The notes under the pieces were generated by a model. It was given only the letters and a program-made list of their open reading frames with translations. It had not been told where the DNA came from and made no database searches. Positions 29,156 through 45,724 of a DNA stretch of 64,000 nt are shown here, one piece after another. Source of the DNA: Bacillota bacterium (lineage in GTDB: Bacteria; Bacillota; Negativicutes; CTSoil-072); the NCBI GenBank assembly GCA_017889545.1, contig JAGFZV010000002.1, positions 1 through 64,000 of the forward strand, read 5' to 3'. The position numbers were made by a program, and so were the translations under genes. Every line of letters begins with the position of its first letter. Position 1 is the first letter of the stretch.

Positions 29156-29212
29156 AAACACGGGGACAGGGATATTGTTTCTTTGAAAAACAATATCCCT
29201 GTCCCCGTGTTT
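29156..29212. repeat. 25-bp perfect palindrome, copy 1 (GGGGACAGG-type)
   Basis: Arms 29156-29180 and 29188-29212 (AAACACGGGGACAGGGATAT.. and its complement) with a 7-base loop. The same stem occurs at 31229-31285 with one loop change. GGGGACAGG palindromes resemble the REP-like repeats handled by RAYT transposases; here they sit just inside the two att-like repeats. It may also end the glycosylase transcript. Confidence 0.8.
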
Positions 29213-29214
29213 TC

Positions 29215-29303
29215 AGAAGAACGATTATAATCCTGGGCGACAACGCAGAAAGCTGTAGGTGAAAACCTTGGCTCTCTTTTCATTTGGAACGTAAGAGATC
29301 GTC
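29215..29303 (+). ncRNA. putative structured RNA element, copy 1
   Basis: 89 bases, 87 identical to 33261-33349. It contains a helix AGAAAGC/GCTCTCT (one mismatch here, perfect in copy 2) topped by AGGT-GAAA-ACCT, a GNRA-type tetraloop. I do not recognise a known riboswitch or sRNA class. Copy 2 lies just before the phase-variable regulator; here the regulator is missing and only promoter-like sequence follows. Confidence 0.5.
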
Positions 29304-29502: not shown

Positions 29503-30612
29503 ATGGCTGATGAAATCAATGGGTTTGAAGGCTTATTTTGGGATGGGACGGTACTGTTTCCGGATGAAAGTGAAGCAACAGACGGTGCCGAAAGTGAGAA
29601 TATAGAAAATCCCGTTAACGTGGTTGTGAATCAGGCTGGAATTGATGTCGGTGGTGAATTGCAGAGCAGCACAGATCAGTCGGACAATCAACCAGGCATT
29701 ATTGATAAAGTCGCAGCTTTTCTAAAAGGGGGTCTAAATACCGAAACACAGACTTATCTGGTTGTAGATCCTTTTGGACTTCCGGCAGACCCAGCTCCTC
29801 ATGAAGATACCTGGGCAGATCCGGATGAATTAACGGAACAACAAAAAAATGATGGTTTAACGATCGGAATTGATCCGTTGGGAGGAACATGGATCGTAAA
29901 CAGCAATGATGACCCGATCCCGGAAGAAATAGACAGGTTCAACCGTAAACTTGAATATATAGACGGTTATGCCAGAGCGCTTGGGAAAACATTTGTCTAT
30001 GATCCTAACGCAAGCTTTGAACAGAACCTGCATAAAGCACTAGAACTAGGAGGGTTTGCGCCTGGTGTCGGCGCCACGGCGGATCTTGCGAATGCAGTAG
30101 TGTATTTGAGCGAAGGCAACTACAAAGAAGCAGGCTACAGTGCAATAGCAGCAGTACCTTTAGCCGGAGATGCTTTTGCTGCGGGAAGAATTACCAATAA
30201 AGCAGGGAAAGTTGTCGATGGGCTGAGTAAAGCTGCAGAGGAAGTAGCTGGAAGTAGCATCAAATTTACTCAAACGACTGCCTCGGTACGTTTTAGTAGG
30301 AACGGAACTTTTTCTGGTAAAACGATTGGCGAGTTAGCAAATGATTTAAGAACTGGAGTGCTTAAGTCAACCGATGTTCCGGTTGAGTATATTGAGAGAG
30401 ATAGTGTTAAACTAGTAGTAAACACAAGGTCGTCTCTCGTGTTAAGAAGAGCAGGAATTCCAGAAACAGAGTGGAATTTGGTTAATAAAACAGGCGATGC
30501 ATTTACAGAATCGAAAGTTACAGAACGACTAGCGCGCAATGAATTGACTGAAGAGGGAACAGATGCTATCAGAGTTACTGGATCAGGAAAGAATGTTAGC
30601 AGTTTAGAATAG
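29503..30612 (+). CDS. polymorphic-toxin-like effector 1 (shared N-terminus, pre-toxin region, ParB-like C-terminus)
   Basis: 369 residues. Residues 1-155 are closely related to the protein at 35764 (MADEINGFEGL.WDG; DPFGLPADPAPHEDTWADPD; DELTEQQ; GIDPLGGTWIVN), probably a sorting/loading region. Residues about 180-225 (GGFAPGVGATADLANAVVYL, AAVPLAGDAFAAG) match the pre-toxin segment common in polymorphic toxins. The last 120 residues (IKFTQTTASVRFS, VLKSTDVPVEYIERD, NTRSSLVLRRAGI) resemble ParB-like toxin tips, in which the usual DNRRLAA is altered. No signal peptide. A small candidate immunity gene follows after 10 bases. Toxicity is inferred. Confidence 0.72.
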   Translation: MADEINGFEGLFWDGTVLFPDESEATDGAESENIENPVNVVVNQAGIDVGGELQSSTDQSDNQPGIIDKVAAFLKGGLNTETQTYLVVDPFGLPADPAPHEDTWADPDELTEQQKNDGLTIGIDPLGGTWIVNSNDDPIPEEIDRFNRKLEYIDGYARALGKTFVYDPNASFEQNLHKALELGGFAPGVGATADLANAVVYLSEGNYKEAGYSAIAAVPLAGDAFAAGRITNKAGKVVDGLSKAAEEVAGSSIKFTQTTASVRFSRNGTFSGKTIGELANDLRTGVLKSTDVPVEYIERDSVKLVVNTRSSLVLRRAGIPETEWNLVNKTGDAFTESKVTERLARNELTEEGTDAIRVTGSGKNVSSLE

Positions 30613-30622
30613 GAGTGAGAAA

Positions 30623-30982
30623 ATGCAGGTAGAAAAAGTATATATTATTAAAGAACTTGCTCAAGATTTTGTAAAGGATCCACAAATAAAAACGACTGAC
30701 AACAACGCTATGCTAATCTATGAGTACGAAGGGGAGTCTGGCGACACTGAAACAAAAGGAATTACGTTCAATGACGTTTTGGCGAGCAAGCATACAACGG
30801 AAATGGGTATGGAAGTATATATGGTCAAAGCCTATAATGCAGTTTCTGTTGTTGAAAATTCTCAATGGTCAAAGGAGTTTGGTGAAAGCATTACTGAGCA
30901 GGGATATAAGCATTTCATAGTGTACTTTGATGATTTTGGGGCATACGAATTCTTAGCTAAAACTTTTGAAAAACCTGAATAG
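30623..30982 (+). CDS. candidate immunity protein for effector 1
   Basis: 119 residues, acidic, with no signal peptide or membrane segment, starting 10 bases after effector 1 behind TAGGAGTGAG. I do not recognise a family. Position, size and low-GC composition relative to the core genome are typical of immunity genes; a cytoplasmic location fits a toxin acting inside cells. Its 3' flank (31021-31120) is homologous to the flank after the second immunity gene (37420-37520). Confidence 0.55.
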   Translation: MQVEKVYIIKELAQDFVKDPQIKTTDNNAMLIYEYEGESGDTETKGITFNDVLASKHTTEMGMEVYMVKAYNAVSVVENSQWSKEFGESITEQGYKHFIVYFDDFGAYEFLAKTFEKPE

Positions 30983-31116
30983 GCAAAGAATGTACAGGTG
31001 TAATTCACACTTATTTTACTGCAAAACTTCGTCCAAACTCATTGCAAAAATGACTGACGCCGAGGTTTGCATCCATGAAACCAGTACACTTTATAGTTTT
31101 TTGATAAACACAGAGC

Positions 31117-31164
31117 ACAAGGTGACTGACGGAAAAATTATTATTATGCCGTCAGTCACCTTGT
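31117..31164 (+). terminator. hairpin at the end of cassette 1
   Basis: Perfect 16-base arms ACAAGGTGACTGACGG / CCGTCAGTCACCTTGT. It lies in the conserved 3' flank of the toxin/immunity cassette. There is no strong T tract. Confidence 0.55.
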
Positions 31165-31228
31165 ATGCCACTCGTATTCTGTTAAGTCTTAAAATGGATA
31201 GGCTATACTAAACTGGACAGTTTTTTTA

Positions 31229-31285
31229 AAACACGGGGACAGGGATATTGTTTCCTTGAAAAACAATATCCCTGTCCCCGTGTTT
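31229..31285. repeat. 25-bp perfect palindrome, copy 2 (GGGGACAGG-type)
   Basis: Stem identical to 29156-29212; loop CCTTGAA instead of CTTTGAA. It lies 11 bases before the right-hand att-like repeat, so the two palindromes mark the inner ends of the 2.2-kb insertion. Confidence 0.8.
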
Positions 31286-31296
31286 ACCCGTGTTTA

Positions 31297-31345
31297 TTTA
31301 TATCAAAGACAATGCGTATGTGGAGCGAAAATAATGGAGACCGCT
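31297..31345 (+). repeat. att-like direct repeat, right copy
   Basis: Matches 29089-29137 (end of the glycosylase gene) at 46 of 49 positions but lacks the rest of the gene. A hairpin with a T tract (ACAGACTGCA/TGCAGTCTGT, 31376-31412) follows. Confidence 0.65.
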
Positions 31346-31375
31346 ACTAGCATTATTTGCGAAATATTTGGGGAG

Positions 31376-31412
31376 ACAGACTGCAGAATTAGGATTATGC
31401 AGTCTGTTTTTT
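31376..31412 (+). terminator. terminator after the right att-like repeat
   Basis: Arms ACAGACTGCA / TGCAGTCTGT then TTTTTT. It may be the original terminator of the glycosylase gene, displaced by the insertion. 31413-31557 shows nothing I recognise. Confidence 0.65.
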
Positions 31413-31557
31413 GCGTCTTAGGCAGATCCTCTACATTACATAAAATAACACCCCCGATATCTCGGAAGGTGCATAATTATTAACAGGGTTTTTGGCAGAC
31501 GCAAATTGCAAACTGTTTTAATTTCCATTGAACGGACATTAAAACCTAATTAAAATA

Positions 31558-31639
31558 CACCTCTTATGTCATAAGCTTTATCATACCACATAAGAGGTGC
31601 CTGTTTTCCAACTGATGGGAAGGTTAAAACCTTCCCATC
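31558..31639 (-). terminator. two hairpins downstream of the exported tandem-domain protein gene
   Basis: GATGGGAAGGTT/AACCTTCCCATC (31614-31639) and CACCTCTTATGT/ACATAAGAGGTG (31558-31599). Read on the minus strand the second is followed by TATTTTAATT and is the better terminator for the gene at 31657. Confidence 0.6.
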
Positions 31640-31656
31640 TCTTTATTAGTACTAGC

Positions 31657-32718
31657 TTACGGTAAATTGAATTCATTTTGTAGCTTGTTCATTAAGAATT
31701 CAGTACCTTCTTGCCGTTTCATTTTTTTCCCCGTATCAAAAACGACATTAGAAATATATTTGTTCGTTTCAGGGTCGACAACAAAGATATCTTCTTTTAA
31801 ACGATAACTGAAATCGTCATCGCCAAAATTAATATTACTTATCACAATAGCAGTCACCAGATTAGAATTGGTCGCTTTTCCATACTCTGTAAGGCTTTCT
31901 TTCTTTAAAATAAAAGTTTGCTGTTTCGCACTATCAGTTCCCACTCTACCAATTAAATCGAGGAACGCCGGAGATTTCGGTTTATTATCAACGTAGATAG
32001 GAACTTCACTTACGCGAAATTTTTCTGAAACTGTTTTTCTGACCTTATCCAGCAAATCTGGTTTTTCAAGAATGATATCGGGCAAAAATACAACGACAGA
32101 ATGTTTTATTTCTTCCGCCTGAACATTGTTTTTCTTATCTGGTTTTTCAACTGGGGGCGTCCAATGAAAATCAATTGCCATATTATTAACTAATTCTTTC
32201 GCTCCTTCCGTCAACATAGGGTTTGTTCCTTCTTTGTACCACCGCAAATATTCCACATATTTGCGAGATGTCACATCAATCACCGAAACAGATTCTTTCA
32301 TATCAAAGCGAACGCCCGACCAAAAATTCCAATATGCATTGCATGGAGAAATTGTAATCAGTATAACATAGTCAGATTTTATGGCTTGTCCATAATTAGC
32401 CAAGTCACCAATATTTATTACTTTTATATTTTTTTCATTAGCGGGATCTGTCTTTACCTTGTCAATGTAATCCAAAAATTCGGGTGTTTTTGCTTGTTCG
32501 TCTCCGTATATTACCACAGTACTTGCATCTTTAAATTTTATCTTAAGGGTATCGCGAATTTTGGCAACAGTTTTACTATCTTCAAGGATTTTCTTATCCA
32601 AAAATAATACCACGGAGACTTGAGGCTGATCCGACGAATCCGCTAAGTCGTTGGGACTTGCCAAACCAATTGAGTGCAAACCAAGCAATAAACAGACGAT
32701 CACTAATAACTTTTTCAC
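31657..32718 (-). CDS. exported protein with two tandem homologous domains, function unknown
   Basis: 353 residues. A clear signal peptide (MKKLLVIVCLLLGLHSIGLA) is followed by two copies of a roughly 150-residue domain. Paired features are SVVLFLDKKILEDS versus SVVVFLPDIILEKP, TPEFLDYIDKVKTD versus SPAFLDLIGRVGTD, LANYGQAIKSDYVI versus LTEYGKATNSNLVT, and VIDVTSRKYV versus VVDPETNKYI. The product should be periplasmic or secreted. I do not recognise the family. It is on the opposite strand to the tail module and may be host cargo or unrelated. The start has GGGGGGAA upstream on the minus strand. Confidence 0.65.
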   Translation of the reverse strand: MKKLLVIVCLLLGLHSIGLASPNDLADSSDQPQVSVVLFLDKKILEDSKTVAKIRDTLKIKFKDASTVVIYGDEQAKTPEFLDYIDKVKTDPANEKNIKVINIGDLANYGQAIKSDYVILITISPCNAYWNFWSGVRFDMKESVSVIDVTSRKYVEYLRWYKEGTNPMLTEGAKELVNNMAIDFHWTPPVEKPDKKNNVQAEEIKHSVVVFLPDIILEKPDLLDKVRKTVSEKFRVSEVPIYVDNKPKSPAFLDLIGRVGTDSAKQQTFILKKESLTEYGKATNSNLVTAIVISNINFGDDDFSYRLKEDIFVVDPETNKYISNVVFDTGKKMKRQEGTEFLMNKLQNEFNLP

Positions 32719-33260
32719 AAATAATTCCCCCCAAATAGTAGGTTTAAATATCCTTTCGCTGCATAGGTAATTATTCCCTGCAAAATACCATTTATCCGGA
32801 ATTATTCATGTAATTTTATCCAAAATGGTGAAATGTAAATAAATTCAAGTATTGCAATGAACGCTTCCATATCAACTCCTATACTTCGGTCACCATTGAC
32901 GTACAAAGGGGTATTTTTGATAAATTATGTAAATATTTGGTGCGGATTTAAAATATTCGAAAACCCCCTATACTTTTTCAGGTTGAACTGTACGTATAAA
33001 GAATAGGAGGACAATTCTAAATGGAAAAGACGATATTCTCTCCTTGGTATATTTGACATAATATTACATAATATATATTATTTAACTAGTGAAAATTTGT
33101 TCAATGAATAGCGAGGGCGTAATATGAATTTGTAAGATATGGAGGTGTATTATGCTGATTACAGAAACTATCGACCTATTTTTAAAAAAACTCAAGCGCT
33201 AAAGTAGGAAAAGGTTGGGGTTGTTGTTCGAGCTGCAGAAGTTACACAAATTAATACAAT
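32719..33260. other. AT-rich intergenic region with two tiny ORFs
   Basis: Contains TGTACGTATAAAGAA copy 2 and two very short reading frames with ribosome sites. One, at 33021-33056 (11 residues, MEKTIFSPWYI), follows TAGGAGG. The other, at 33152-33202 (16 residues, MLITETIDLFLKKLKR), follows GGAGGTG. The second resembles the N-terminal start of a tyrosine recombinase and may be an integrase remnant, but this is weak. The rest is AT-rich with no other feature. Confidence 0.4.
32989..33003 (+). promoter_or_regulatory. TGTACGTATAAAGAA motif, copy 2
   Basis: Identical to copies 1 and 3 and followed at once by TAGGAGG and the 11-residue ORF at 33021. Probable island-specific promoter or leader element. 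Confidence 0.45.
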
Positions 33261-33349
33261 AGAAGTACGATTATAATCCTGGGCGACAACGCAGAGAGCT
33301 GTAGGTGAAAACCTTGGCTCTCTTTTCATTTGGAACGTAAGAGATCGTC
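33261..33349 (+). ncRNA. putative structured RNA element, copy 2
   Basis: 89 bases, 87 identical to 29215-29303. Helix AGAGAGC/GCTCTCT (33293-33323) is perfect here and capped by AGGT-GAAA-ACCT; the G/A difference between copies improves the pairing. The regulator gene starts 20 bases downstream, so it may be a cis-acting leader. No known class recognised. Confidence 0.5.
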
Positions 33350-33370
33350 ATTGTATAAGGAGGTAATCAT

Positions 33371-33758
33371 GTGTACGGATCACGGTCAAGGGGAGAGAAG
33401 AGTTCTGATTTGCCGCAAAAAGCGTTGTTTGGCGATGAATACGATGTCAGGCGACTTGTGAATATCATTCGTCGCTACCATGAACTGAGAAGTGCGGCTG
33501 AAATTACAATTGCTGTATATGAGCCCGTTGGGGGAGGGGGGGGGTTATCGGGGCAAAGACAATATTTTGTGTGTACTTGCCGACATTGATCAGGGATTAG
33601 CGTTATTATCGTCGCGACAAATGATTGTTGTTGAGCTGTTGAAAAGAGGTTATCAAGTCAAGGAAATTGGCAGCATTCTTGGGATTAGTCCGACGACTGT
33701 AAAATTTCACTTACAGCAGGCGGTATTACGGTTAGCTGCGTACCTCAATAATTTATAG
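33371..33758 (+). pseudogene. phage-type HTH regulator interrupted at a G9 tract (frameshifted or phase-variable)
   Basis: The frame opened by GTG at 33371 (behind AAGGAGGT) encodes SRSRGEKSSDLPQKALFG and DEYDVRRLVNIIRRYHEL, then ends soon after a G5-A-G9 run at 33530-33544. The +1 frame continues with DIDQGLALLSSRQM and a sigma-region-4/LuxR-like HTH (VKEIGSILGISPTTVKFHLQQA). Removing one G gives a single 128-residue protein covering 33371-33758, with length exactly divisible by three. So the copy here is off, phase-variable, or a sequencing error. By position and HTH type it should activate the tail locus. An overlapping ATG at 33369 gives only a 30-residue peptide. Confidence 0.75.
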
Positions 33759-33773
33759 AGGAAGGGTGAAAAG

Positions 33774-33959
33774 ATGAAGCGATATTATAGCCTGGAGTTG
33801 TTGGAAAGCCTTTATCGGCAACAGGAGCCTAGCTTTCCAGAAAGCACAATAAAAGAACGGGCGAAAAGCCTGCAAAAAGGATTAAACACGCTGGATACAT
33901 GCTGGGCTCGAAGTAATCGTCGATTTTATGCCCATATTCAACTGATGGAGTTTATCTAA
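33774..33959 (+). CDS. small phage-type protein, function unknown
   Basis: 61 residues (MKRYYSLELLESLYRQQEPS...), charged, soluble, starting 15 bases after the regulator behind GGAAGGGTG. I do not recognise it. It lies between the regulator and the third TGTACGTATAAAGAA motif and has been deleted from the duplicated locus at 29.3 kb. Confidence 0.55.
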   Translation: MKRYYSLELLESLYRQQEPSFPESTIKERAKSLQKGLNTLDTCWARSNRRFYAHIQLMEFI

Positions 33960-33987
33960 ATCCTACCTATCTGTTTTTGTCACTTGA

Positions 33988-34002
33988 TGTACGTATAAAG
34001 AA
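33988..34002 (+). promoter_or_regulatory. TGTACGTATAAAGAA motif, copy 3
   Basis: Same motif and flanks as copy 1, followed by GGAGGGAGGG and the cysteine-rich small gene at 34020. It lies at the head of the tail genes, so it is the best candidate for their promoter. Confidence 0.5.
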
Positions 34003-34019
34003 GGAGGGAGGGAGAAAAT

Positions 34020-34154
34020 ATGTATTGTCCATTACTTTGCAGCAGCCCAAATAAGAGCACAGCTTCATTTTGTCAATGTTTGGGAGAAGCCTGCGCTTGG
34101 TGGGTTGTAGTCAACAATACCGGTAAATGCGCAATTACTCAGCTTGGAGCGTAA
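34020..34154 (+). CDS. 44-residue cysteine-rich phage protein (CAWW type)
   Basis: ATG behind GGAGGGAGGG. The peptide has six cysteines (C3, C7, C18, C20, C25, C37) and the motif EACAWWVV followed by GKCAI. Similar short CPL...C...CAWW...CAI proteins occur in clostridial-type prophages and probably bind a metal. It is too short for many gene callers. In the copy at 29.3 kb only the ribosome site and first codons of this region remain. Confidence 0.6.
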   Translation: MYCPLLCSSPNKSTASFCQCLGEACAWWVVVNNTGKCAITQLGA

Positions 34155-34207
34155 GGCATCGGTAAAAGAGAGAGCTAATATTCCATTATTAAGAAAGGGA
34201 TGAGAAC

Positions 34208-34684
34208 ATGGTACCGACATTGAAATTGAGAGATATCGTGGTTAAATGGCGGGATGCTTTGCAGGCAAGTTCGGCCATACAAAGCTATTGTACTACTAAG
34301 TATAGCAAGTCGCCAAAAATTTACGTTGGCATTAACGGTAAAAGCCTCCCGGCGGATACCGACTGCCCGATAATTATCATTTATCCCGGGGAGAAATCGG
34401 AAGGGTTGGAACTGCAAGAGTATAGTTATACTTTGACAGTGGGCTGGACGATTCTTCAGTCGGCGACGACCACGACCGGCAGCATTACGGAGTATACGGG
34501 AGCCACGGAGTGTGACGATCTTGGACAGTTGATCTATCTGGAGCTGGCGCAACTGAGTACGAATTACCCTGTCAGCGAAGTGAAATACAATATTGAACCG
34601 GTGGCCTATTATCCGCGCTTTCCCGGCCGCATGGATATCACTGTAAAAATTAAGCCTGTCAATGGCTATAGCATTAGTTACTAA
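34208..34684 (+). CDS. tail terminator/completion-like protein
   Basis: 158 residues, mostly beta-strand-like, soluble, no signal peptide (LRDIVVKWRDALQASSAI; KIYVGINGKSLPADTDCPIIIIYPG). I infer a gpU-type tail terminator because of its size and its place directly before the tail-tube gene (13-base gap), as in lambda-like tail operons. Direct sequence recognition is weak. GAAAGGGATGAG precedes the ATG. Confidence 0.5.
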   Translation: MVPTLKLRDIVVKWRDALQASSAIQSYCTTKYSKSPKIYVGINGKSLPADTDCPIIIIYPGEKSEGLELQEYSYTLTVGWTILQSATTTTGSITEYTGATECDDLGQLIYLELAQLSTNYPVSEVKYNIEPVAYYPRFPGRMDITVKIKPVNGYSISY

Positions 34685-34697
34685 GGGGGGAAACAAC

Positions 34698-35651
34698 ATG
34701 TCAAGAGCAAAGGGATATACATCCAAATTGGCTCTGGCGTATGAGAGCGCATACGGTCAGACCCCGGCATCCCCGGTGGGTTATAATATGCCATTTAATC
34801 AGTCGAAAATCACAATTTCACAAAACCTGATTGATTCGAGTACGATCCGTAGTCGCCGTGACAAAATGCAGCCGTCAATCGGCAATATCGATGTATCCGG
34901 CAATATTGTGGTGCCGGTCGATCAAATCGGCATTGGCTTTTGGCTACGGGCCATGTTTGGCAATCCAACAACTACCGGCAGTGCTGATCCTTATACCCAT
35001 GTATTCAAAGCAACCAATAGTCAGCCGTCGCTAGTGCTGGAGCAGCAATACCCGGATGTTCCGGCTTATGAAAAATACAACGGATGCAAAGTAAACAAAT
35101 TCTCCTTCGCGTATGGCGGCGATGATGAGCTGATTGCCAATATGAATATCCTTGGTGCGAAGCGAATCGTCGAGTCTTCATCGTTTGATGCAATGCTGAC
35201 TGATATTTCAATCCTGAAATACAGCAACTTTCAAGGATCGATCGAAGAAGGCGGCTCACAATTGGCGACAGTGACCGAAGCCAGCTTGAATGTTGATTTC
35301 GGCCTGGATGGCAATACCTATGCCATCGGTGGCAACGGCTGCCGGACCGATCTGCCGGAAGGGATTATGCAAATATCCGGCAACCTCAAAGCGTTTTTTG
35401 CTGATACCGTGTTATTGAATAAGGCGGTTGACAACACCAAATCCTCGCTTAAATTCAAATTCACCAGCGGGACCCACAGCTTGCAATATTATATGGAAGA
35501 GGTAGTCTTCCAGCAAACTTCACCGGGCATTGAAACCGATAAAGGCATTATGATCAATTTGCCATTCAAAGCGTTTTATGACAAAGGTGCCGGCGGCAGT
35601 GCCATTGTAGCGACGCTCGTCAATAGTCAAACATCCTACGCATCGTTATAA
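34698..35651 (+). CDS. phage tail tube protein
   Basis: 317 residues from the ATG at 34698 behind GGGGGG. The opening SRAKGYTSKLALAYESAYGQTP, then FNQSKITISQNLIDSSTIRSRRD and the GNIVVPVDQIGIGFWLRAMFG segment, are characteristic of the long tail-tube family of siphophages and tailocins. It would polymerise into the tail tube. The last codons and stop are partly repeated at 29376-29390 ahead of effector 1. A 24-bp hairpin follows, then effector 2 where tail chaperone and tape-measure genes would usually be. Confidence 0.75.
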   Translation: MSRAKGYTSKLALAYESAYGQTPASPVGYNMPFNQSKITISQNLIDSSTIRSRRDKMQPSIGNIDVSGNIVVPVDQIGIGFWLRAMFGNPTTTGSADPYTHVFKATNSQPSLVLEQQYPDVPAYEKYNGCKVNKFSFAYGGDDELIANMNILGAKRIVESSSFDAMLTDISILKYSNFQGSIEEGGSQLATVTEASLNVDFGLDGNTYAIGGNGCRTDLPEGIMQISGNLKAFFADTVLLNKAVDNTKSSLKFKFTSGTHSLQYYMEEVVFQQTSPGIETDKGIMINLPFKAFYDKGAGGSAIVATLVNSQTSYASL

Positions 35652-35665
35652 GAAACAAAATAGAA

Positions 35666-35718
35666 CAACGAACCCCCATACTTCAAGGTGAAGAACCTCG
35701 AAGTATGGGGGTTCGTTG
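35666..35718 (+). terminator. hairpin between the tail-tube gene and effector 2
   Basis: Arms CAACGAACCCCCATACTTC.. / ..GAAGTATGGGGGTTCGTTG, 24 bp with one mismatch. Homologous to 29410-29450. It could limit read-through so that effector expression differs from that of the tail genes. Confidence 0.7.
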
Positions 35719-35763
35719 TAAGTGGCTATACGGAGCAAAGGACATGAGGTGGTAGGTGTAAAA

Positions 35764-36723
35764 ATGGCTGATGAAATAAACGGATTTGAAGGCTTGTATT
35801 GGGATGGAATGGTACCTTTTTCGGGTGAAAGCAAACCGGTGGACAGTGGTAGTGCGAACATGGAAGGTATTGTTAGCATAGATGTAAATCAGACTGATAT
35901 CCATGTTGATGGCGATTCAAATGATAGTATCGATCAGTCGAGCAATAAACCGGGTATTATTGATAAGGTAGCAGATTTTTTAAAAGAGAAGTTCGACACT
36001 GAGGAGACGAATTATTTGCAGGGAGATCCTTTTGGACTTCCAGCAGACCCAGCTCCTCATGAAGATACTTGGGCAGATCCAGATGAATTAACTGAGCAGC
36101 AAAAAACCGATGGTTTAACGTTAGGAATTGATCCGTTAGGTGGGACATGGATAGTAAACAGCAATGATGACCCGATACCGGAAGAAAGCGACAGGTTTAG
36201 CCGTAAACTTGAATATATAAACAGTTATACCAGCGCGCTTGCAAAAGTTCAGGAAAATTTGGTCTCTATGCCTCCAATTTTGTTACCAATGGTAGCAGGA
36301 GTAATGATAGAATTAGGAACACAGGCTTTGAACAGTAATATTAGTAATCTCTTTAAGGGGCCGAGTAATCCTGAAGCTGTATCTATAAAATTAAAGTATA
36401 AGGAAGGATGGACGGTTGAACAAAAAGCGGCTGCCAACTCAAAAGTAGAAGTCCTTAATAATTCTGAAGCAATTAAAACAACGCCACAAAGAAGCGGAAC
36501 TTCTGCCTCGTCCAGGTATAAGAAGGCTAATGGTCCTGACTCTGTACCAGAAGGGGCTGAAGTAGATCATAAGCTTGATTTACAATTGGGTGGTAAAGAT
36601 GATATAACTAATATGTGGCCACTTGATAAGAGCGTTAATCGAAGTCTTGGAAAGCAAATTGATATTAAAATCAAAGATTTGAAAGATGGAACCCGGATTG
36701 AAAAAATCGAAATTGGTGAGTAG
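35764..36723 (+). CDS. polymorphic-toxin-like effector 2 (shared N-terminus, HNH-like nuclease C-terminus)
   Basis: 319 residues. Residues 1-160 are closely related to effector 1, including DPFGLPADPAPHEDTWADPD, DELTEQQ and GIDPLGGTWIVN. A short central region (about 170-200) is hydrophobic. The C-terminal 80 residues (SSRYKKANGPDSVPEGAE, VDHKLDLQLGGKDDITNMWP, VNRSLGKQI) carry the D-H ... N ... N pattern of HNH/colicin-type nucleases. The ATG at 35764 has AGGTGGTAGGTG upstream. The partner gene 12 bases downstream resembles T6SS Tdi1-type immunity proteins. DNA or RNA as target is inferred. Confidence 0.75.
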   Translation: MADEINGFEGLYWDGMVPFSGESKPVDSGSANMEGIVSIDVNQTDIHVDGDSNDSIDQSSNKPGIIDKVADFLKEKFDTEETNYLQGDPFGLPADPAPHEDTWADPDELTEQQKTDGLTLGIDPLGGTWIVNSNDDPIPEESDRFSRKLEYINSYTSALAKVQENLVSMPPILLPMVAGVMIELGTQALNSNISNLFKGPSNPEAVSIKLKYKEGWTVEQKAAANSKVEVLNNSEAIKTTPQRSGTSASSRYKKANGPDSVPEGAEVDHKLDLQLGGKDDITNMWPLDKSVNRSLGKQIDIKIKDLKDGTRIEKIEIGE

Positions 36724-36735
36724 GAAGGAGAAAAC

Positions 36736-37371
36736 ATGAATTTTGAAAAATTTCCCCAAAGATTTAAGGCTAGTTTTTCATTGAAAAAAACAATATTGCT
36801 TGATGATGAATTGAAGAAAAAGTTTAGTAATTCGATTGGGGCCGCAGAGTTTTTACAAAACTATGCAGGCACAACATTCAATAATGGTTTATATAGGATT
36901 CATAAAGTTGAAGATATTCCAAAATGGAATGCAATTGTTGGAAAAGTGTTTCCTGAGATTGCAGATTTTATTGTTTGTTTTTCCTACGATTGGTTAGGAC
37001 GTCACTTTGCTCTTGATTTTAGAAGGAAAGAAAATGATGAGCCCTTAATTATTATACTAGAACCTGGAACTGGTGACGCGCTTGAGGTTCCAACAACATT
37101 TAGGATGTTTCATGAAGAGGAATTGTCAGAGCATCAAGATGCTGCATTGTCGGTTGATTTTTTCAATCAATGGAGAACAAATAACTCTGAAAGATTATTA
37201 AATAATCAGTGTGTTGGATATAAAGTTCCGCTTTTTATCGGCGGGCAAGATACCATGGAAAACTTAGCATTAGGTGACATGGAAGTATATTGGGAAATAT
37301 GTGGGCAGTTGCTGAATAAAGTTCGTAATTTACCACCTGGAACACCGATAAGTGTCACGATTTCTGATTAA
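36736..37371 (+). CDS. Tdi1-like immunity protein for effector 2
   Basis: 211 residues, cytoplasmic. N-terminal GAD-like region (FKASFSLKKTILLDDELKKK) and C-terminal DUF1851/Tdi1-like region (GYKVPLFIGGQDTMENLAL, GDMEVYWEICGQLL, LPPGTPI). These domains are known from immunity proteins of type VI and other polymorphic toxins, notably those against nucleases. AGGAAGGAG precedes the ATG, 12 bases after effector 2. Low-GC composition compared with the tail genes around it suggests recent acquisition. Confidence 0.72.
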   Translation: MNFEKFPQRFKASFSLKKTILLDDELKKKFSNSIGAAEFLQNYAGTTFNNGLYRIHKVEDIPKWNAIVGKVFPEIADFIVCFSYDWLGRHFALDFRRKENDEPLIIILEPGTGDALEVPTTFRMFHEEELSEHQDAALSVDFFNQWRTNNSERLLNNQCVGYKVPLFIGGQDTMENLALGDMEVYWEICGQLLNKVRNLPPGTPISVTISD

Positions 37372-37885
37372 CATCGACTACATGGACCTCCAATGGAAGA
37401 AAATGCATCTAGCTTTCGCTGCAAAATCCCGCACCAACTCACTGCAAAAAAACGGACGGTGAGGTCTGTACTATGAAACCAGTGCGCTACATGGCTTTTT
37501 GACAAAAACAGAGCACAGCAACTGACCGCATAATTGGAATTCTGCAGTCATTCTCCTTGTGTGTTCGTATAGCGACAGTATCGTCGGTAGTACCAGTGAC
37601 GCAACTATCTCTAGTGACGCTACGTGCAAACAAGATCAAAAAAGCATGAAGGCTAACAGGTATAAAATCTTGTGGCCTTTTTCCTTTTGAAGGATTTTTT
37701 TAAGAAAAATGAATGCGGTGAGGATAAGGATGTTAACAAACAACACAAAAGGGGCAACTTAGTGGCAGCATCATCGGAAGATTGCTGTCCTTTCCATCAA
37801 TATATTCTGGTTTAAAACAAAGAGTCAGGGATATTTTTCCTGGCTCTTTGTTTTAGATAAATTTAAAAACAAGGAGGCAAAAACA
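37372..37885. other. intergenic region after cassette 2
   Basis: About 510 bases. 37420-37520 is homologous to the flank after cassette 1 (31021-31120; shared ATGAAACCAGT, TTTTTGA, ACAGAGCACA). 37814-37857 is a strong terminator (AAAACAAAGAGTCAGG / CCTGGCTCTTTGTTTT). No tape-measure or chaperone reading frame is visible, nor an obvious remnant. Confidence 0.6.
37814..37857 (+). terminator. terminator before the tail-tip genes
   Basis: 16-base arms with one G-T pair, ending in TTTT, 29 bases before the M-like gene. It separates the tube/effector part from the tail-tip part. Confidence 0.75.
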
Positions 37886-38248
37886 ATGGCACAATTTCCC
37901 AATATTCAACAACCGGTATATCCATTTACCACTAAGATCAAAGACCCCTCTCTGCAATCCGAGATGGAAAACGGGCTGGTCATTTCTCGGGCTAAATTTA
38001 CCAGGGCACCACAAACCTTCACTTTGAAATGGTCCGCTTTGCCAGCGGCCGATTACGCGATCCTGCGTGACTTTTACCGGAATACTGTTTTAGGTGGCAG
38101 TCTGGTATTTGACTGGTATTATCCGACAGTACCCAACGATTCTTATTCCGGACAGCTATTCTCCGTCCGTTTCACAGGTGGGGACATCAGCTTTGACTTG
38201 GCGGCACCAGGCTACTATTCCGGCAAACTGACGATCCAGGAGGTGTAG
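37886..38248 (+). CDS. minor tail protein M-like
   Basis: 120 residues (QPVYPFTTKIKDPSLQSEMENG; TFTLKWSALPAADYAILRDFY; GGSLVFDWYYP; YSGKLTIQEV). Size, fold pattern and position directly before L-, K- and J-like genes identify the lambda gpM / DUF2460-like tip protein. AAGGAGG precedes the ATG. It begins the tail-tip operon, with the next gene 4 bases downstream. Confidence 0.72.
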   Translation: MAQFPNIQQPVYPFTTKIKDPSLQSEMENGLVISRAKFTRAPQTFTLKWSALPAADYAILRDFYRNTVLGGSLVFDWYYPTVPNDSYSGQLFSVRFTGGDISFDLAAPGYYSGKLTIQEV

Positions 38249-38252
38249 CAGT

Positions 38253-38870
38253 ATGCTGAATTTGTCAGTTGCCGGTATGGTTGAGAAAAGCCAACTTTCC
38301 AGTGAAGGAGTATGGCTGCTGCTGGTAGAAGTAGCTATCCCGGATTTATCGGAGCCCTTGCGCCTGGTGCGCAATAACGAAGATATTATCTGGAATGGCC
38401 ACACCTGGACGGCTTTTAATTTTAAACTTGGCGACGTCACTGAAGACAACAAAGGCAAGCCGCAGTCGGTTCCGCTGCAGATTTCCAATATTACGCAAAC
38501 CGTGCAGGCTTATGTGGAGGAAAATAATGGTTTGACCGGTACGGCGGTAACTCTGCGGGTGGTTCATTCTCAATATTTGAACAATATTTTGCCTGAATTG
38601 GAAGAAGTCTTTACTGTACAGTCAACAACTTGCGATAGCAAGTGGATCACCTTTTTTCTTGGTTCAGAAAGATCAATCCAGGTGCGATTTCCGTTTCGCC
38701 GGGTGCTGAAGAATTTCTGCGCTTGGCGTGATCAATACAAAGGGATCGAATGCGGATATGCCGGATCGCTAATGGAGTGTGACGGCACCTTGACCTCTTG
38801 CCGAACACGGGACAATGAGGCCCGTTACGGCGGTGAACCTAGCATCCCGGAAGGAGGGTTATACGCATAA
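38253..38870 (+). CDS. minor tail protein L-like, with conserved cysteines
   Basis: 205 residues. The C-terminal part has four cysteines in the pattern FCAWRDQYKGIECGYAG ... ECDGTLTSC, followed by RYGGEPSIP, as in lambda gpL, whose C-terminal domain binds a [4Fe-4S] cluster. It should be part of the tail tip. AGGAGGTG precedes the ATG. It overlaps nothing and is followed after one base by the K-like gene. Confidence 0.78.
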   Translation: MLNLSVAGMVEKSQLSSEGVWLLLVEVAIPDLSEPLRLVRNNEDIIWNGHTWTAFNFKLGDVTEDNKGKPQSVPLQISNITQTVQAYVEENNGLTGTAVTLRVVHSQYLNNILPELEEVFTVQSTTCDSKWITFFLGSERSIQVRFPFRRVLKNFCAWRDQYKGIECGYAGSLMECDGTLTSCRTRDNEARYGGEPSIPEGGLYA

Positions 38871-38871
38871 T

Positions 38872-39267
38872 ATGAATATAAAATTTAATGATCTGATTGG
38901 CTTACCGTTTATTGATGGCGGGCGAGATCCAGGCGTCGGCTTGGATTGCTGGGGATTATCCACGGAAATCTTCCGGCGTTATGGGCAGGAACTGCCTGAC
39001 TATAAGATATCGTGTGAGAATGCGAGCTTAATCAACTGTGAAGTGAATAAACAAAGACCTTATTGGCGCAGGTGCGAAGGAGAAATCCCCGTTCCTGCGC
39101 TTGTTGTTATCCGGTTTGCCGTATTTTGTGATCATACGGGAGTATACATCGGACAAGGACGATTTATCCATACCCGCAAAGAAGTCGGTGTCAATATTGA
39201 CCGCATCGATAGCATTGCCTGGTCGAAACGGATCGAAGGTTTTTATGTACCGGAGGTGAGGACATGA
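38872..39267 (+). CDS. tail assembly protein K-like (NlpC/P60 peptidase)
   Basis: 131 residues. GLDCWGLSTEIFRRYGQELP carries the catalytic cysteine and FCDHTGVYIGQGRFIHT the histidine region of the NlpC/P60 fold, as in lambda gpK. It probably trims peptidoglycan cross-links during tail assembly or entry. I chose ATG 38872, which follows GGAGGG and the L-like stop. Its stop overlaps the J-like start (ATGA). Confidence 0.78.
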   Translation: MNIKFNDLIGLPFIDGGRDPGVGLDCWGLSTEIFRRYGQELPDYKISCENASLINCEVNKQRPYWRRCEGEIPVPALVVIRFAVFCDHTGVYIGQGRFIHTRKEVGVNIDRIDSIAWSKRIEGFYVPEVRT

Positions 39268-42200
39268 TCAATATAACAGTTATCAAAAACCCATTCAACT
39301 ATACTGATAAGCAAATCGATACCTGCGAATACATACCCGGTAAAACAGTGCATGAGTATGTGCAGCCTTATATCATCGGGAGCGAAGATTATGTTGTCAG
39401 CAGGAACGGCGAGATCGTAGAAGATGTCAAGGCGCAGCTGGTCGGCAGTGAAGACTGGCTGGCGGTTTGTCCGATTGTCGGCAAAAGCGGATCGGCCTTG
39501 TTTAGAACGCTTTTTATGATTGCACTGAGTGCATATATTGGCGGGTTGAATAATGGTGTCTTAAACAATGGAAAATTTTGGGACGGAATAATAAGGGGCG
39601 CTGCTGTGGCCGTTGGCGGCGTTCTTATCAACCACTGGTTCCCAGCGGCAAAGCCTGATAAGATCAATGCCGACCCGTCTTACAACTGGGGCAGCGCGCA
39701 ATCGCAGAGCGGCCAGGGCAATGCTCTGGCGGTAACGTATGGCACGATGCGAACCGCTGGTCAGATCGTCGCCCAGCATGTGTCAAGCGATAACGAAAAA
39801 CAATATCTGAATGTTCTGCTGTGCGGCGGCGAGGGGCCAGTCGACAGCATTAGCGATATTCGGATTAACGACAACCCCATTTCCTTTTATTCAGAGGTAA
39901 CTTCCGAAATCCGCCTTGGTGACAATGATCAATTAGCAATTGCTAATTTTAACGAGACATATATTGATCAGGATTTAGCCTATGAGTTGGATTATGAGAA
40001 AGGCATAGGAGGATCATGGCACACCCAGGAAACTTCGGGAAATGCGGTTGAGGGATTGGAAATTACGCTTTCGTTTCCAGGCGGTCTTTTTTACTCCAAC
40101 GATAGCGGCGGTTTGAGTAAGACGTATGTTAAAATACAGGCGGACTATAGCCTTGTTAATTCAGAAGATTGGGTTAATTTTGCAACGGATACAATTGTGA
40201 AAAAGGATAATACGGCTTTCTTCCGGACATACCGCATTGATCATCTGTCAGCCAATCAATATAAGGTAAGGGTTAAATGCACTGAGAAAAAAGATACTAC
40301 CAGCCGGTATTCAAACCGCGTATTCTGGACGCAGCTGTCAAACATCATGGATGAAAAATTTACCCGTCCCGGTAAGGTATTGTTAGGGATCAAGGCTTTG
40401 GCGACAAGTCAGCTCAGCGGCGGCGTGCCATGCATCACCTGGGTTCAGACCCGCAACACAGTTTGGGTATGGAACGCCACAGCCGGTCAGTATGAACAAA
40501 AATCAGCCGCAAATCCGGCATGGGCGGCTTATGACATGATTCACCGCTGCCGATATTTAAAGAATATCAATACCGGCAGTTATGAATATCATGTCGCAGG
40601 TGCTCCAGCCTCGCGGATCGTATACCAAGATTTCGTCAACTGGGCAGCCTTTTGTGATAGCCGGACCCTGACATTTCACTATATTTTCGAATCGGCAAAT
40701 GATCTTTGGACCTCTTTGCAGAAGCCGGAAGGCGTAGGGCGGGGCAAGGTTATTCTGAGGGGCACAAGGTTTGGCTGTGTTTGTGACGCGCCTGGTCAGC
40801 CGGTACAATTATTCACGGTCGGCAATATTATTACCGACAAATTTAAAGAAACTTTCGTAAGTCAAAAAGACCGGGCGAATGCGATCGAAATTTCCTTCGC
40901 CAACAAGGACAAAGGGTATCAGAAGGAAGTCATCACGGCTTACAGCGACGATTATGATGAAGCGACTGAGCCGAATATCACCCAAATTAGCTTGGATGGA
41001 GTTACGAGTATTGAACAGGCTTACCGGGAGGCGAAATATCGGCTGCGTCTCAATCAATACCTGCTGCGGACGGTGGAGCACAGCGCGGACATTGATGCGA
41101 TTGCCTGCCAGATTAACGATGTTGTTCTGTTGGCGCATGACGTGCCGCAATGGGGATTTTCCGGACGGCTGCTGAACGCAACAGAAACGACGCTGCAGCT
41201 TGACCGTCAGATAACGCTGCAGCCAAATAAAGCGTATGTGGTAGCGTTGCAGGTTACCAATCCTGCGGCAACGACAGCAGAAGAAGTTCAAAGTATAGTT
41301 ATCATGGCTGTGCAAAGTGTTGCAATCGAAACAACTACCGATACGATCACGCTCAGCGGTTCGCTGTCGACTGTTCCGCAACAATGGGATCTTTACAGTT
41401 TTGGTGAAGCCAATAAGGTTGTCAAACCGTTTAGGGTGCTCGGCATCAGCCGGGATCAGGATCTTAAACGTAAAATCACCTGCATCGAATATATTGACGC
41501 AGTGTACAATGAAGTGACAGAGATACCGGTTGTCAACTACAGCGGATTGGAAGTAGTGGCTGAAGTCAACAGTATCAGCGTGGCGGAAGAAACCTACCAG
41601 CAAAAAGACGGCACAATGGTATCCGATCTGAATGTCGCCTGGAACAATCCGCGCAATAAGCCGATCACCGGCTATAAAGTGCTGTACAGTAGTGACGATG
41701 AGCAGACGTGGACCGAATTATGCAGCGGCATAACCGCTCTAAAAGCTTCGGTTCCCGGCGTAAAAACCGATACGACATATTTCGTAAAGGTTTGCACAAT
41801 CAATGATACGGGCGTTGTATCAACCGGCGTTATAGCTTCGGTATATGTTACCGGCAAAGACGTTCTGCCGTCGAATGTCGCCAGTTTATCGGCAGCGCTT
41901 GATGCCGCGGATTTAACAAAAATCGTATTATCATGGCCGCCGGTAGAGGATATTGACTTGGCAGGATACCGCATCCGGGAAGGTTCGACAATTCTCGAAA
42001 ATCTGGCTCAGATTACCACTTATACTTACGCCGCAACCGAGAATCGAACGCACTACTTCACGGTTACGGCTGTAGACAATTCCGGCAATGAATCCTTGGT
42101 CTTGGCGGCGGCGGATATTACTCCGGCAATATGCCCAACTACCCCAAACGGGTTTACGGCAGTACAAAATGGAGAATATGTTTATCTTTATTGGAACAAG

Positions 42201-43118
42201 AACAATGCAACCGATATTGCGGGGTACGAGGTTCGACAGGGAGCACTCTTTAATAATGGTTCGTTGGTCAAAACCGGCATAACCGGCACAGACCTCTCTG
42301 TACCGGTTAGCTCGGAAACAACTTATCGCTACCATATCAAAGCAATCAACAATGCCGGTAAATATAGCGAAGATGCAGCGGTTGCCGAGGTTATAATTTA
42401 CGGATTGCCGCCGAAAAACGTAATTTTGAGTTTCGATGAAATGACATTGCAAAACGGGATACACACAAATACAATATTTGGTTCGTCATATTATAACTGT
42501 CTCACGTTCCCGGGACGATGCAGCGATTATCTTTCGACGCAATGTAACCAGGTTGGAGGGGCAACAGTATTGAAACTGCAAGACGGACAGACATCCGGTT
42601 CCTATTTGACGGTGAGAAAAGACCTTGGGAAATTGATTAAAGTCAATTTGGCCGCTAATTTTATTTCCACTGGGTTACTAAGCGGTGGAAATTCTGCTAC
42701 TTTGTATTACCGAAATAGTCGAGACGGGATGAATTTTGAAGATTGGAAAGTTTTTGTACCGATTATCATTACTACCCGCTATCTTGACTTTAGGGCAGAT
42801 TTATCTTCAGGTGATCCAACGCATTATCCTATTGAAGTTGGTATTTTCACAGAAACTATTGATGTCGATGATGTGGAGAAAATAGGAAGTGCAACTATTG
42901 CAGTCGGTGGAACGCCAGCAGACTATGGCTATACATTTTTGGGCGGATCCGGGCCAGGTAATACACCGGTATTTACTCCAACGGCGATTGGCTCGGGGCT
43001 AAGGGCTGAGGTAGTATCCGTCGGATTGTCAAGCGCTGTTGTGAAAGTAGTCAATGCAACGAACGGTACAGATACTGGCGGAACGATTACTTATCGAGTA
43101 AAAGGATATGGAGGTTAA
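39264..43118 (+). CDS. tail tip / host-specificity protein (TipJ/gpJ-like, fused gpI-like N-terminus, FN3 repeats)
   Basis: 1284 residues. The first 140 residues (INITVIKNPFN, GSEDYVVSRNGEIVED) and a hydrophobic stretch (FMIALSAYIGGLNNG, GAAVAVGGVLINHW) correspond to gpI. Residues about 150-750 are the TipJ baseplate-hub region (GNALAVTYGTMRTAGQIV; LLCGGEGPVDSISDI; WAAYDMIHRCRYL). Three fibronectin type III domains cover about 755-850, 865-950 and 955-1050. The C-terminal 230 residues should be receptor-binding or fibre-connecting. GGAGGTGAGG precedes the ATG. It is intact and the largest gene of the island. Confidence 0.82.
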   Translation: MINITVIKNPFNYTDKQIDTCEYIPGKTVHEYVQPYIIGSEDYVVSRNGEIVEDVKAQLVGSEDWLAVCPIVGKSGSALFRTLFMIALSAYIGGLNNGVLNNGKFWDGIIRGAAVAVGGVLINHWFPAAKPDKINADPSYNWGSAQSQSGQGNALAVTYGTMRTAGQIVAQHVSSDNEKQYLNVLLCGGEGPVDSISDIRINDNPISFYSEVTSEIRLGDNDQLAIANFNETYIDQDLAYELDYEKGIGGSWHTQETSGNAVEGLEITLSFPGGLFYSNDSGGLSKTYVKIQADYSLVNSEDWVNFATDTIVKKDNTAFFRTYRIDHLSANQYKVRVKCTEKKDTTSRYSNRVFWTQLSNIMDEKFTRPGKVLLGIKALATSQLSGGVPCITWVQTRNTVWVWNATAGQYEQKSAANPAWAAYDMIHRCRYLKNINTGSYEYHVAGAPASRIVYQDFVNWAAFCDSRTLTFHYIFESANDLWTSLQKPEGVGRGKVILRGTRFGCVCDAPGQPVQLFTVGNIITDKFKETFVSQKDRANAIEISFANKDKGYQKEVITAYSDDYDEATEPNITQISLDGVTSIEQAYREAKYRLRLNQYLLRTVEHSADIDAIACQINDVVLLAHDVPQWGFSGRLLNATETTLQLDRQITLQPNKAYVVALQVTNPAATTAEEVQSIVIMAVQSVAIETTTDTITLSGSLSTVPQQWDLYSFGEANKVVKPFRVLGISRDQDLKRKITCIEYIDAVYNEVTEIPVVNYSGLEVVAEVNSISVAEETYQQKDGTMVSDLNVAWNNPRNKPITGYKVLYSSDDEQTWTELCSGITALKASVPGVKTDTTYFVKVCTINDTGVVSTGVIASVYVTGKDVLPSNVASLSAALDAADLTKIVLSWPPVEDIDLAGYRIREGSTILENLAQITTYTYAATENRTHYFTVTAVDNSGNESLVLAAADITPAICPTTPNGFTAVQNGEYVYLYWNKNNATDIAGYEVRQGALFNNGSLVKTGITGTDLSVPVSSETTYRYHIKAINNAGKYSEDAAVAEVIIYGLPPKNVILSFDEMTLQNGIHTNTIFGSSYYNCLTFPGRCSDYLSTQCNQVGGATVLKLQDGQTSGSYLTVRKDLGKLIKVNLAANFISTGLLSGGNSATLYYRNSRDGMNFEDWKVFVPIIITTRYLDFRADLSSGDPTHYPIEVGIFTETIDVDDVEKIGSATIAVGGTPADYGYTFLGGSGPGNTPVFTPTAIGSGLRAEVVSVGLSSAVVKVVNATNGTDTGGTITYRVKGYGG

Positions 43119-43349
43119 TGAATATGTTATATACGACAAATGTAGGTCTCTAGGTCTGTGGTGAGTGGGAGTTTCACCTGCAAATTGGGTTGGGATGATT
43201 TTGCTTTTCGTAGTGATGTCTTTTCACCAGGTGATGATGGTCGATGTGACGGCACTAGAAGTTTATCCGGTTCTTGCTGGGTTTTGCCACTCGTTTTATT
43301 GGTGGAGTGATCATAAATTATTAAATTTTAATATTAGGAGTGATTTTAA
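43119..43349. other. probable decayed gene between the tip protein and the fibre
   Basis: A start at 43125 encodes only MLYTTNVGL. Further on, different frames encode fragments that look coding (FSPGDDGRCDGTRSLSGSC in one, HSFYWWSDHKLLNFNI in another), which suggests a fibre-like gene broken by frameshifts. No intact product. Confidence 0.4.
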
Positions 43350-44063
43350 ATGGCTTACGATGCAAATGTACCTGTTGATAACTTAATAATCTCTGCGATA
43401 CCTGGGGCAATACGAGAAAAGGGTGTAGAAGTAAAAAACATTATTGATGCACATACAAGCGATACTACCGATGCACATGCGGCAAGTGCAATAACCAATG
43501 TCGCACAGGGAAATATTAGTTCAACTACAGTACAAGAAGCAATTAATGAATTAGACACAAAAAAAGTGCCTGCTACGGATGTTGCCACAGAGGCAGGCGC
43601 AAATAAAATTTTGAAATTAAACGCAACCGCTAAACTTCCTGCAGACATCACAGGAAATGCTGCTACGGCAACAATTTTAGCGTTGACTAGGAAAATTGCA
43701 GGTGCAAATTTTAACGGTGACTCAGATATAGATATATCATATGCAAATCTTACTAATAAACCAACCATACCGCCTAATTATGATCTTGGTCATCTTTTAG
43801 CGAGTAATGGATATCAAAAGTTTGAAAATGGATTAGTGATTCAATGGGGTACTGTATTCGGGATCAATGACACAAATACTGCAGTCACATTTCCTGTACC
43901 TTTTTCAACAGCGGTTCTTTGTGCTTTAGCATCTTTGAACTTTGCATTCTCTACCGGTAATGATGCGGGTTGCGGAACAAACGCATGGACAACAACGGGT
44001 ATGAATGTTCGCAATGGTTCCAGTGTGAATGGAAATGTTTGTTGGATTGCCATAGGATACTAA
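43350..44063 (+). CDS. tail fibre protein
   Basis: 237 residues. The N-terminus is low-complexity with repeated D-A-H and T-D segments (NIIDAHTSDTTDAHAASAI). Then come ATDVATEAGANKILKLNATAKLPADITGNAATA, found in phage fibres, and a C-terminal gp53-like tip (NGYQKFENGLVIQWGT, VTFPVPFSTAVLCALAS). It should bind the target cell. TAGGAGTG precedes the ATG. It ends the tail part of the module; a terminator follows. Confidence 0.75.
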   Translation: MAYDANVPVDNLIISAIPGAIREKGVEVKNIIDAHTSDTTDAHAASAITNVAQGNISSTTVQEAINELDTKKVPATDVATEAGANKILKLNATAKLPADITGNAATATILALTRKIAGANFNGDSDIDISYANLTNKPTIPPNYDLGHLLASNGYQKFENGLVIQWGTVFGINDTNTAVTFPVPFSTAVLCALASLNFAFSTGNDAGCGTNAWTTTGMNVRNGSSVNGNVCWIAIGY

Positions 44064-44100
44064 GAGATTTAAAGAATATCTACAGAAACGCTAGTGCGGA

Positions 44101-44165
44101 AAAATTTACAATCCCCATTGTCAGGTGAAATAGAACTTGGTCATGGGGGTTGTAAATTTTTGTCT
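44101..44165 (+). terminator. terminator after the tail fibre gene
   Basis: 18-base arms AAAATTTACAATCCCCAT / ATGGGGGTTGTAAATTTT, followed by TT. 44166-44298 has no other gene. Confidence 0.75.
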
Positions 44166-44298
44166 GTAGTCATCGATTTTATACCTATATTAAACTGCTG
44201 GATTTTATCTAAATCATAGCGATTTTTGAATTGTCTCATTTTTGAAGAGTTCATTGCAGTGAAATAAAGAGGAAACAATTTTGGGAGGAAAGGATACT

Positions 44299-44613
44299 AT
44301 GGCTGATGATTCGAATAGTGAATTTAATCGACTATTTTCTTCGGGTTCATTTGATGTCACCGGATTTGACAGTGCTAATAATGATACTTCGTTAAATAAT
44401 CCAAAAATGATGAATACATTCAACAATGTATGGAAAAATAATTTTCAGACAGCCTTAGGACCACTTAATTCCGCATTTATTGATGCGGAATTAAGTGATC
44501 AAGATGTTGCGGATGGGTATGTATTGGAGTATAATCCAATTGGGATATTATGGAGAGTAAATGCTGCTGGAATACCGCATCCCGATGATTCAGACAATTA
44601 TTTTGCCACATAA
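44299..44613 (+). CDS. marker-domain-only protein (effector without a toxin tip)
   Basis: 104 residues from the ATG behind GGGAGG. Residues 45-100 (ALGPLNSAFIDAELSDQD; EYNPIGILWRVNAAGIPHPDD) are closely similar to residues 60-115 of the peptidoglycan-hydrolase effector at 47092 and match the shorter motif of effectors 1 and 2. It ends straight after the motif, so it has either lost its toxin or works as an adaptor. A membrane-anchored candidate partner follows after 14 bases. Confidence 0.65.
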   Translation: MADDSNSEFNRLFSSGSFDVTGFDSANNDTSLNNPKMMNTFNNVWKNNFQTALGPLNSAFIDAELSDQDVADGYVLEYNPIGILWRVNAAGIPHPDDSDNYFAT

Positions 44614-44627
44614 GGAAAACTGAGGAG

Positions 44628-45083: not shown

Positions 45084-45113
45084 TAAGATTGGTTTCATTA
45101 CCGAGTTGCATGC

Positions 45114-45195
45114 TGGCAGCATCTTTTATGGATGCTGCCATTTTTGTCAAATAATCTTTCGAAACATCCCCTGGTTATATGCCGGGGGATGTTTC
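45114..45195 (+). terminator. two hairpins after the membrane protein gene
   Basis: TGGCAGCATC/GATGCTGCCA then TTTTTG (45114-45145) is a good terminator. GAAACATCCC/GGGATGTTTC (45161-45195) adjoins the mosaic repeat. Confidence 0.7.
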
Positions 45196-45199
45196 TCCT

Positions 45200-45407: not shown

Positions 45408-45453
45408 TTTTCAGCAAATTTCGTAATGTATCATTTTGGAGGGAGGTGAAGTG

Positions 45454-45723: not shown

Positions 45724-45724
45724 C

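What the first reader, a model, noticed from the sequence alone, without database searches (positions are those of the whole stretch)
33371..33758. Regulator gene switched off by one extra G in a G9 tract
The N-terminal and HTH halves lie in different frames that meet at G5-A-G9 (33530-33544). Deleting one G restores a 128-residue protein of exact codon length. Long G runs are classic slippage sites, so the island could be phase-variable, producing particles in only part of the population. Programmed frameshifting is a second possibility.
Basis: partly seen in the sequence, partly recalled or inferred. Interest (0 to 1): 0.78.

Follow-up and report, generated by a model that had tools for sequence, protein, structure and literature searches.

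The report
Tail-island regulator broken in poly-G linker
A small DNA-binding regulator gene at the head of a bacterial phage-tail-like island is cut in two reading frames by an odd-length run of G's in a flexible linker, most likely an ordinary, recent and slowly reversible mutation (or an assembly error) rather than a proven on/off switch.

Summary
G5-A-G9 lies at 33530-33544 and separates two frames of one gene. Intact relatives (Sporomusa, a Massilibacillus MAG and other Negativicutes) carry the same regulator in one open frame, and their alignments switch frame on the window between 33529 and 33537. The C half is a sigma-70-region-4/LuxR-type HTH; the G tract encodes a disordered Gly linker between the N-terminal helix and that domain. 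Every other tail gene compared aligns in one frame, and both halves keep coding-like divergence, so the break is recent.

Phase variation is possible but unproven. Arguments against an evolved switch: this is the only gene found broken at a G run of 8 or more in the held genome; two G9 runs genome-wide is about the chance number; no relative has the tract; MutS and MutL are intact. Programmed frameshifting has no support. A consensus error cannot be excluded, because the only second record (IMG/VR) is identical and probably the same assembly.

A related MAG lost its regulator through a different lesion while its tail genes stay open. The surroundings may be more unusual: a lambda-like tail island with no recognisable tape measure, carrying variable effector genes in its slot.

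The parts
33357..33363 (+). Ribosome-binding site AAGGAGG, 7 nt before the GTG start
   Evidence: Sequence; relatives have the same AGGAGG and similar spacing
33371..33529 (+). N-terminal half of the regulator (53 codons, predicted helix at residues 26-50)
   Evidence: Aligns with L043, L044 and L045 regulators in this frame; model
33530..33544 (+). G5-A-G9 tract encoding the Gly linker; site of the frame break
   Evidence: linker predicted disordered, pLDDT below 50 at residues 51-58
33545..33589 (+). Out-of-frame tail translated after the tract when the N frame is followed; ends at TGA
33546..33758 (+). C-terminal half: sigma-70 region 4 / LuxR-type HTH domain, in the other frame
   Evidence: Pfam GerE 2e-10 and Sigma70_r4_2 5.7e-8; Foldseek sigma region 4, weak E-values
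33774..33959 (+). Conserved 61-aa protein adjacent to the regulator; relatives of it accompany the regulator in the relatives compared
33294..33322 (+). Leader hairpin followed by TTTT (attenuator-like); an 89-nt copy lies at 29215-29303 before an effector gene
34208..34684 (+). Phage protein (phrog_17431), intact
34698..35651 (+). Tail tube (Phage_tube_2), intact
35764..37371 (+). Polymorphic-effector-like gene and putative immunity gene in the tape-measure position
37886..43118 (+). M-like, L, NlpC/P60 K-like and fused I-J tip genes, all in single frames

Best explanation
The gene encodes a roughly 128-residue regulator made of an N-terminal helix, a Gly-rich flexible linker and a C-terminal sigma-70-region-4/LuxR-like DNA-binding domain. 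It stands first in a capsid-less, lambda-like tail island. The linker is written with GGG/GGA codons, creating a G run, and strand slippage during replication has left the run at nine G, so translation leaves the frame at the linker and stops at 33589 without the DNA-binding domain. The mutation is recent, because both halves and the compared tail genes are still in good order. It is in principle reversible by another slip, but nothing shows that it is used as a switch; intact mismatch repair should keep reversion slow. Shown: the frame break, its place, the family, the intact remainder. Inferred: slippage as cause, loss of function, and reduced island expression (the regulator is assumed to be an activator, as Xpf is in PBSX; from memory).
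For: Intact single-frame relatives; frame switch located between 33529 and 33537; Gly linker aligned and predicted disordered; third-position-rich divergence in the C half, e.g. 12/9/35 by codon position against L085; all other compared tail genes in single frames; no paralog in the genome; G8 runs in four long genes in frame, and 43 homopolymers of 6 or more inside long window ORFs without a break; two G9 runs is about the genome-wide chance number; MutS and MutL intact.
Against: No reads were available, so G9 may be a consensus error. In Campylobacter jejuni G9-G10 is the usual length of switching tracts, with a bias to insertions at G8 (PMC8355987), so a real switch would look the same in one genome. 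That loss of the regulator lowers tail expression is untested.
Confidence: 0.58

Rival explanations
1. Consensus or assembly error: the true tract is in frame and the regulator is intact.
For: Homopolymers are error-prone; spurious Illumina indels were estimated to affect up to 1% of genes in a metagenome (PMC8808543). The only second record, IMGVR_UViG_3300033406_000393, is 100% identical over the fetched 10 kb and probably the same assembly. Everything else in the gene looks functional.
Against: G8 runs in other genes, and A/T runs up to 8 in window genes, are in frame; Illumina indel errors rise mainly above 14 bases. The sequencing platform of this genome is not known.
Confidence: 0.2
2. 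Evolved phase-variable switch: the G tract is maintained so that a minority of cells make the regulator and express the tail island.
For: G9 is in the classic switching range (PMC8355987); the tract sits in a linker where length changes should not harm the protein; the cargo looks costly and antagonistic.
Against: No other gene in the genome was found broken at a G run of 8 or more; no relative has the tract; MutS and MutL are intact, whereas C. jejuni lacks mismatch repair; no variation observed.
Confidence: 0.12
3. Regulator loss is tolerated or favoured: the regulator is dispensable, or silencing the island pays, so it is being lost in several lineages, here by slippage.
For: In CTSoil_080 (L042/L054) the N half is deleted and the start is out of frame while the tail genes stay open.
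Against: Most of the family members found are intact, and both halves in the window still look constrained.
Confidence: 0.07
4. Programmed +1 frameshifting or transcriptional slippage on the G run makes the full protein at a set ratio.
For: The G run allows re-pairing after a +1 slip and contains an SD-like GGAGG.
Against: Relatives encode the protein in one frame; no downstream structure, z = -0.47; the shift site is not followed by a stop codon.
Confidence: 0.03

Closest known systems
Homopolymer-tract frameshift / poly-G contingency genes (Campylobacter, Neisseria)
   Same: Single-base length change of a G run within an ORF that breaks the frame; length 9 is typical of switching tracts in C. 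jejuni (PMC8355987).
   Different: Only one such gene found in this genome, intact mismatch repair, no observed variation, no tract in relatives.
Xpf of the B. subtilis PBSX defective prophage (from memory) and phrog_3512 sigma-factor-like proteins
   Same: Small sigma-region-4-like regulator associated with a phage-tail island; phrog_3512 matches the intact relative L044 at 1.3e-7.
   Different: Weak match for the window protein (9.7e-5); Gly-rich linker; different island architecture; function untested.
F-type (lambda-like) tailocins
   Same: Capsid-less set of tube, M/L/K and I-J tip genes.
   Different: No recognisable tape measure; effector-like and immunity-like genes occupy its slot.

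Membership tests
Phase-variable poly-G gene | Mononucleotide G tract inside the ORF whose length sets the frame | tested here: met
Phase-variable poly-G gene | Tract length varies within a population or between close strains | not testable with these tools
   No reads; the one other record is identical and probably the same assembly
Phase-variable poly-G gene | Tract conserved at this site in relatives | tested here: not met
   Linker DNA of six relatives has no such run
Phase-variable poly-G gene | Several such tracts in the genome and/or weak mismatch repair | tested here: not met
   Two G9 runs, the other in a T-box-like leader; MutS/MutL full length
Sigma-70 region 4 / LuxR-type HTH regulator | HTH domain above the Pfam cut-off | tested here: met
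   GerE 40.6 bits (cut-off 23.5), Sigma70_r4_2 32.7 (25.7)
Sigma factor proper | Sigma region 2 and full sigma model above cut-off | tested here: not met
   sigma70-ECF 23 bits, cut-off 42.9; only the C-terminal region matches
Programmed frameshift gene | Split frame and shift site conserved in the family | tested here: not met
   Relatives are single-frame
F-type tailocin | Tail genes without capsid or terminase in the island | tested here: met
   PHROG/Pfam hits of the island ORFs scanned; not every small ORF was scanned
F-type tailocin | Tape-measure gene | tested here: inconclusive
   None seen among ORFs between tube and M-like gene in the window or relatives; not every ORF was profiled
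F-type tailocin | Particle formation and killing | not testable with these tools
   Needs the organism and an assay

The most novel reading that the evidence does not exclude
A G tract in the linker of a sigma-region-4-type regulator acts as a reversible switch that restricts a tape-measure-less, effector-carrying tail island to a minority of cells.
Probability: 0.1. Interest if true: 0.65.

Novelty: new member of a known kind. Interest (0 to 1): 0.32.

Why it matters
If the tract switches, it would be a clean case of bet-hedging over a phage-derived weapon in Negativicutes and would show who pays for tail production. As it stands it is a clear example of a homopolymer frameshift confined to the regulator of an otherwise intact tail island, and it draws attention to a recurrent island family with effectors in the tape-measure slot.

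Tried and rejected
Programmed frameshifting: no conservation and no downstream structure. Restart of the HTH half at an internal start: no Shine-Dalgarno before GTG 33492 or ATG 33519 by eye. A paralog supplying the function: none in the genome. An independent copy of the locus: a viral contigs pattern scan returned only the identical IMG/VR record. Phage records: no relative of the regulator. Rfam gave only sub-gathering matches, nearly all microRNA models on hairpin repeats. A first alignment (A1) contained a stray sequence and was discarded. A read-through with the word GGGG shifted the frame in the wrong places and was replaced by GGGT. Paper searches for the metagenome number and for Sporomusa tailocins found nothing.

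Full report
Observation. The tract G5-A-G9 is at 33530-33544. An ORF from GTG 33371 ends at 33589 and a second from 33492 ends at 33758. With the frame moved once within the last G run, the two give one 128-residue protein.

One gene, shown by relatives. A whole-genome search over the window's class returned about a dozen true family members; all but the window and one other lie in a single open frame. The named ones are Sporomusa silvacetica DSM 10669, a Massilibacillus MAG and the MAG CTSoil_080; Sporomusa belongs to Negativicutes. The protein of L043 aligns to the window from 33410 to 33529 in one frame and from 33537 to 33749 in the next, so the break lies in the G tract. With one G fewer, the linker V-GGGGG-Y matches V-GGGSN-Y of L045 in length.

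What the protein is. The C half passes the Pfam cut-offs for GerE and Sigma70_r4_2. A four-sequence AlphaFold2 model has modest confidence (mean pLDDT 62) but gives helix 26-50, a low-confidence stretch at 51-58 where the tract is translated, and a helical C domain. Foldseek's best matches are mostly sigma region 4 and LuxR-type domains, with E-values above 0.001. Full sigma-factor models are not reached. The gene is followed by a conserved 61-aa partner and then by tail genes; in G024 the regulator and a relative of the partner stand before what look like contractile-tail genes (by eye).

How old is the break? Every other tail gene compared aligns with relatives in a single frame. The HTH half differs from relatives mostly at third codon positions (12/9/35 against L085), and the alignable N half is similar to other pairs. 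The break is therefore recent, or not real.

Is it a switch? For: G9 is the usual length of switching tracts in C. jejuni, with a bias to insertion at G8 (PMC8355987), and the tract is in a tolerant linker. Against: the genome has eight runs of G8 or more, only two of G9, and the other G9 is in a leader that carries the T-box motif GGGTGGTACCGCGG by eye; the number is about what chance gives; runs of G8 in four long genes are in frame; no relative has the tract; MutS and MutL are full length, whereas C. jejuni lacks mismatch repair. Relatives in the class have anything from no G9 match to tens of matches, so counts vary widely.

Is it an error? The IMG/VR record begins exactly at window 29503 and is identical over the fetched 10,247 bases including G9, but it is probably the same assembly. 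Illumina indels in homopolymers concern mainly runs above 14 bases but were estimated to affect up to 1% of metagenome genes (PMC8808543). The 43 homopolymers of 6 or more inside long window ORFs leave those ORFs open. The platform is not known. About 20% for an error seems fair; this is a judgement.

A second broken regulator. In CTSoil_080 the ribosome-binding site now runs straight into the linker: the ATG opens a 41-codon wrong frame and the HTH frame has a stop just upstream. Its tail genes are open, although L carries an in-frame deletion. Loss of the regulator with the tail kept has thus been seen twice, by different lesions; both genomes are drafts.

Programmed frameshifting is unlikely: the family is single-frame and no stimulatory structure is predicted.

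Conclusion. A real observation with a mostly ordinary reading: a recent slippage frameshift in a Gly-linker G run of a tail-island regulator, reversible in principle. The direction of regulation is an inference. Counting tract lengths in the raw reads would settle most of it.

Noticed in passing
window 34662-43118; L042, L043, L044, L051, L053/L086, L085: Lambda-like tail island with tube, M-like, L, K-like and fused I-J genes but no recognisable tape measure; different effector-like genes (often with a putative immunity gene) sit between tube and M-like gene in most relatives, elsewhere in the island in L085. The L044 one has repeats of about 11 residues (NEATYAKNAIV).
   Followed up: partly
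window 29503-30612, 35764-36720, 44281-44613, 47092-48282: Effector-like genes share N-terminal regions (MADEINGFEGL...WDG; DPLGGTWIVNSNDDP and related), also found in effector genes of relatives: possibly a loading domain for the tail.
   Followed up: partly
window 29215-29303 and 33261-33349: 98% identical 89-nt leader with a hairpin followed by T's, before an effector gene and before the regulator; a similar leader is in CTSoil_080 (L054, about position 1012). No other full copy in the genome.
   Followed up: partly
window 29156-29212 and 31229-31285: Two 98% identical near-perfect 57-nt palindromes (AAACACGGGGACAGGGATATTG...), possibly a miniature mobile element.
   Followed up: no
L053/L086 (Sporomusa silvacetica): The unit of 158-aa protein, tube and effector is present twice in tandem with a partial M-like gene between, suggesting cassette duplication.
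   Followed up: no
L049 2481-2837, L050 2613-2969: Regulator frames open for 119 codons without ATG/GTG/TTG where relatives start; ATC stands at the start position in both. Weak start or start loss.
   Followed up: no
L042/L054 about 1147-1412: Regulator of CTSoil_080 has lost its N half, with the ribosome-binding site now driving a wrong 41-codon frame.
   Followed up: yes
window 29503-47029: IMG/VR lists a 17,527-base viral record starting exactly here (UViG_3300033406_000393), whose length fits 29503-47029, although no capsid or terminase gene was recognised.
   Followed up: partly
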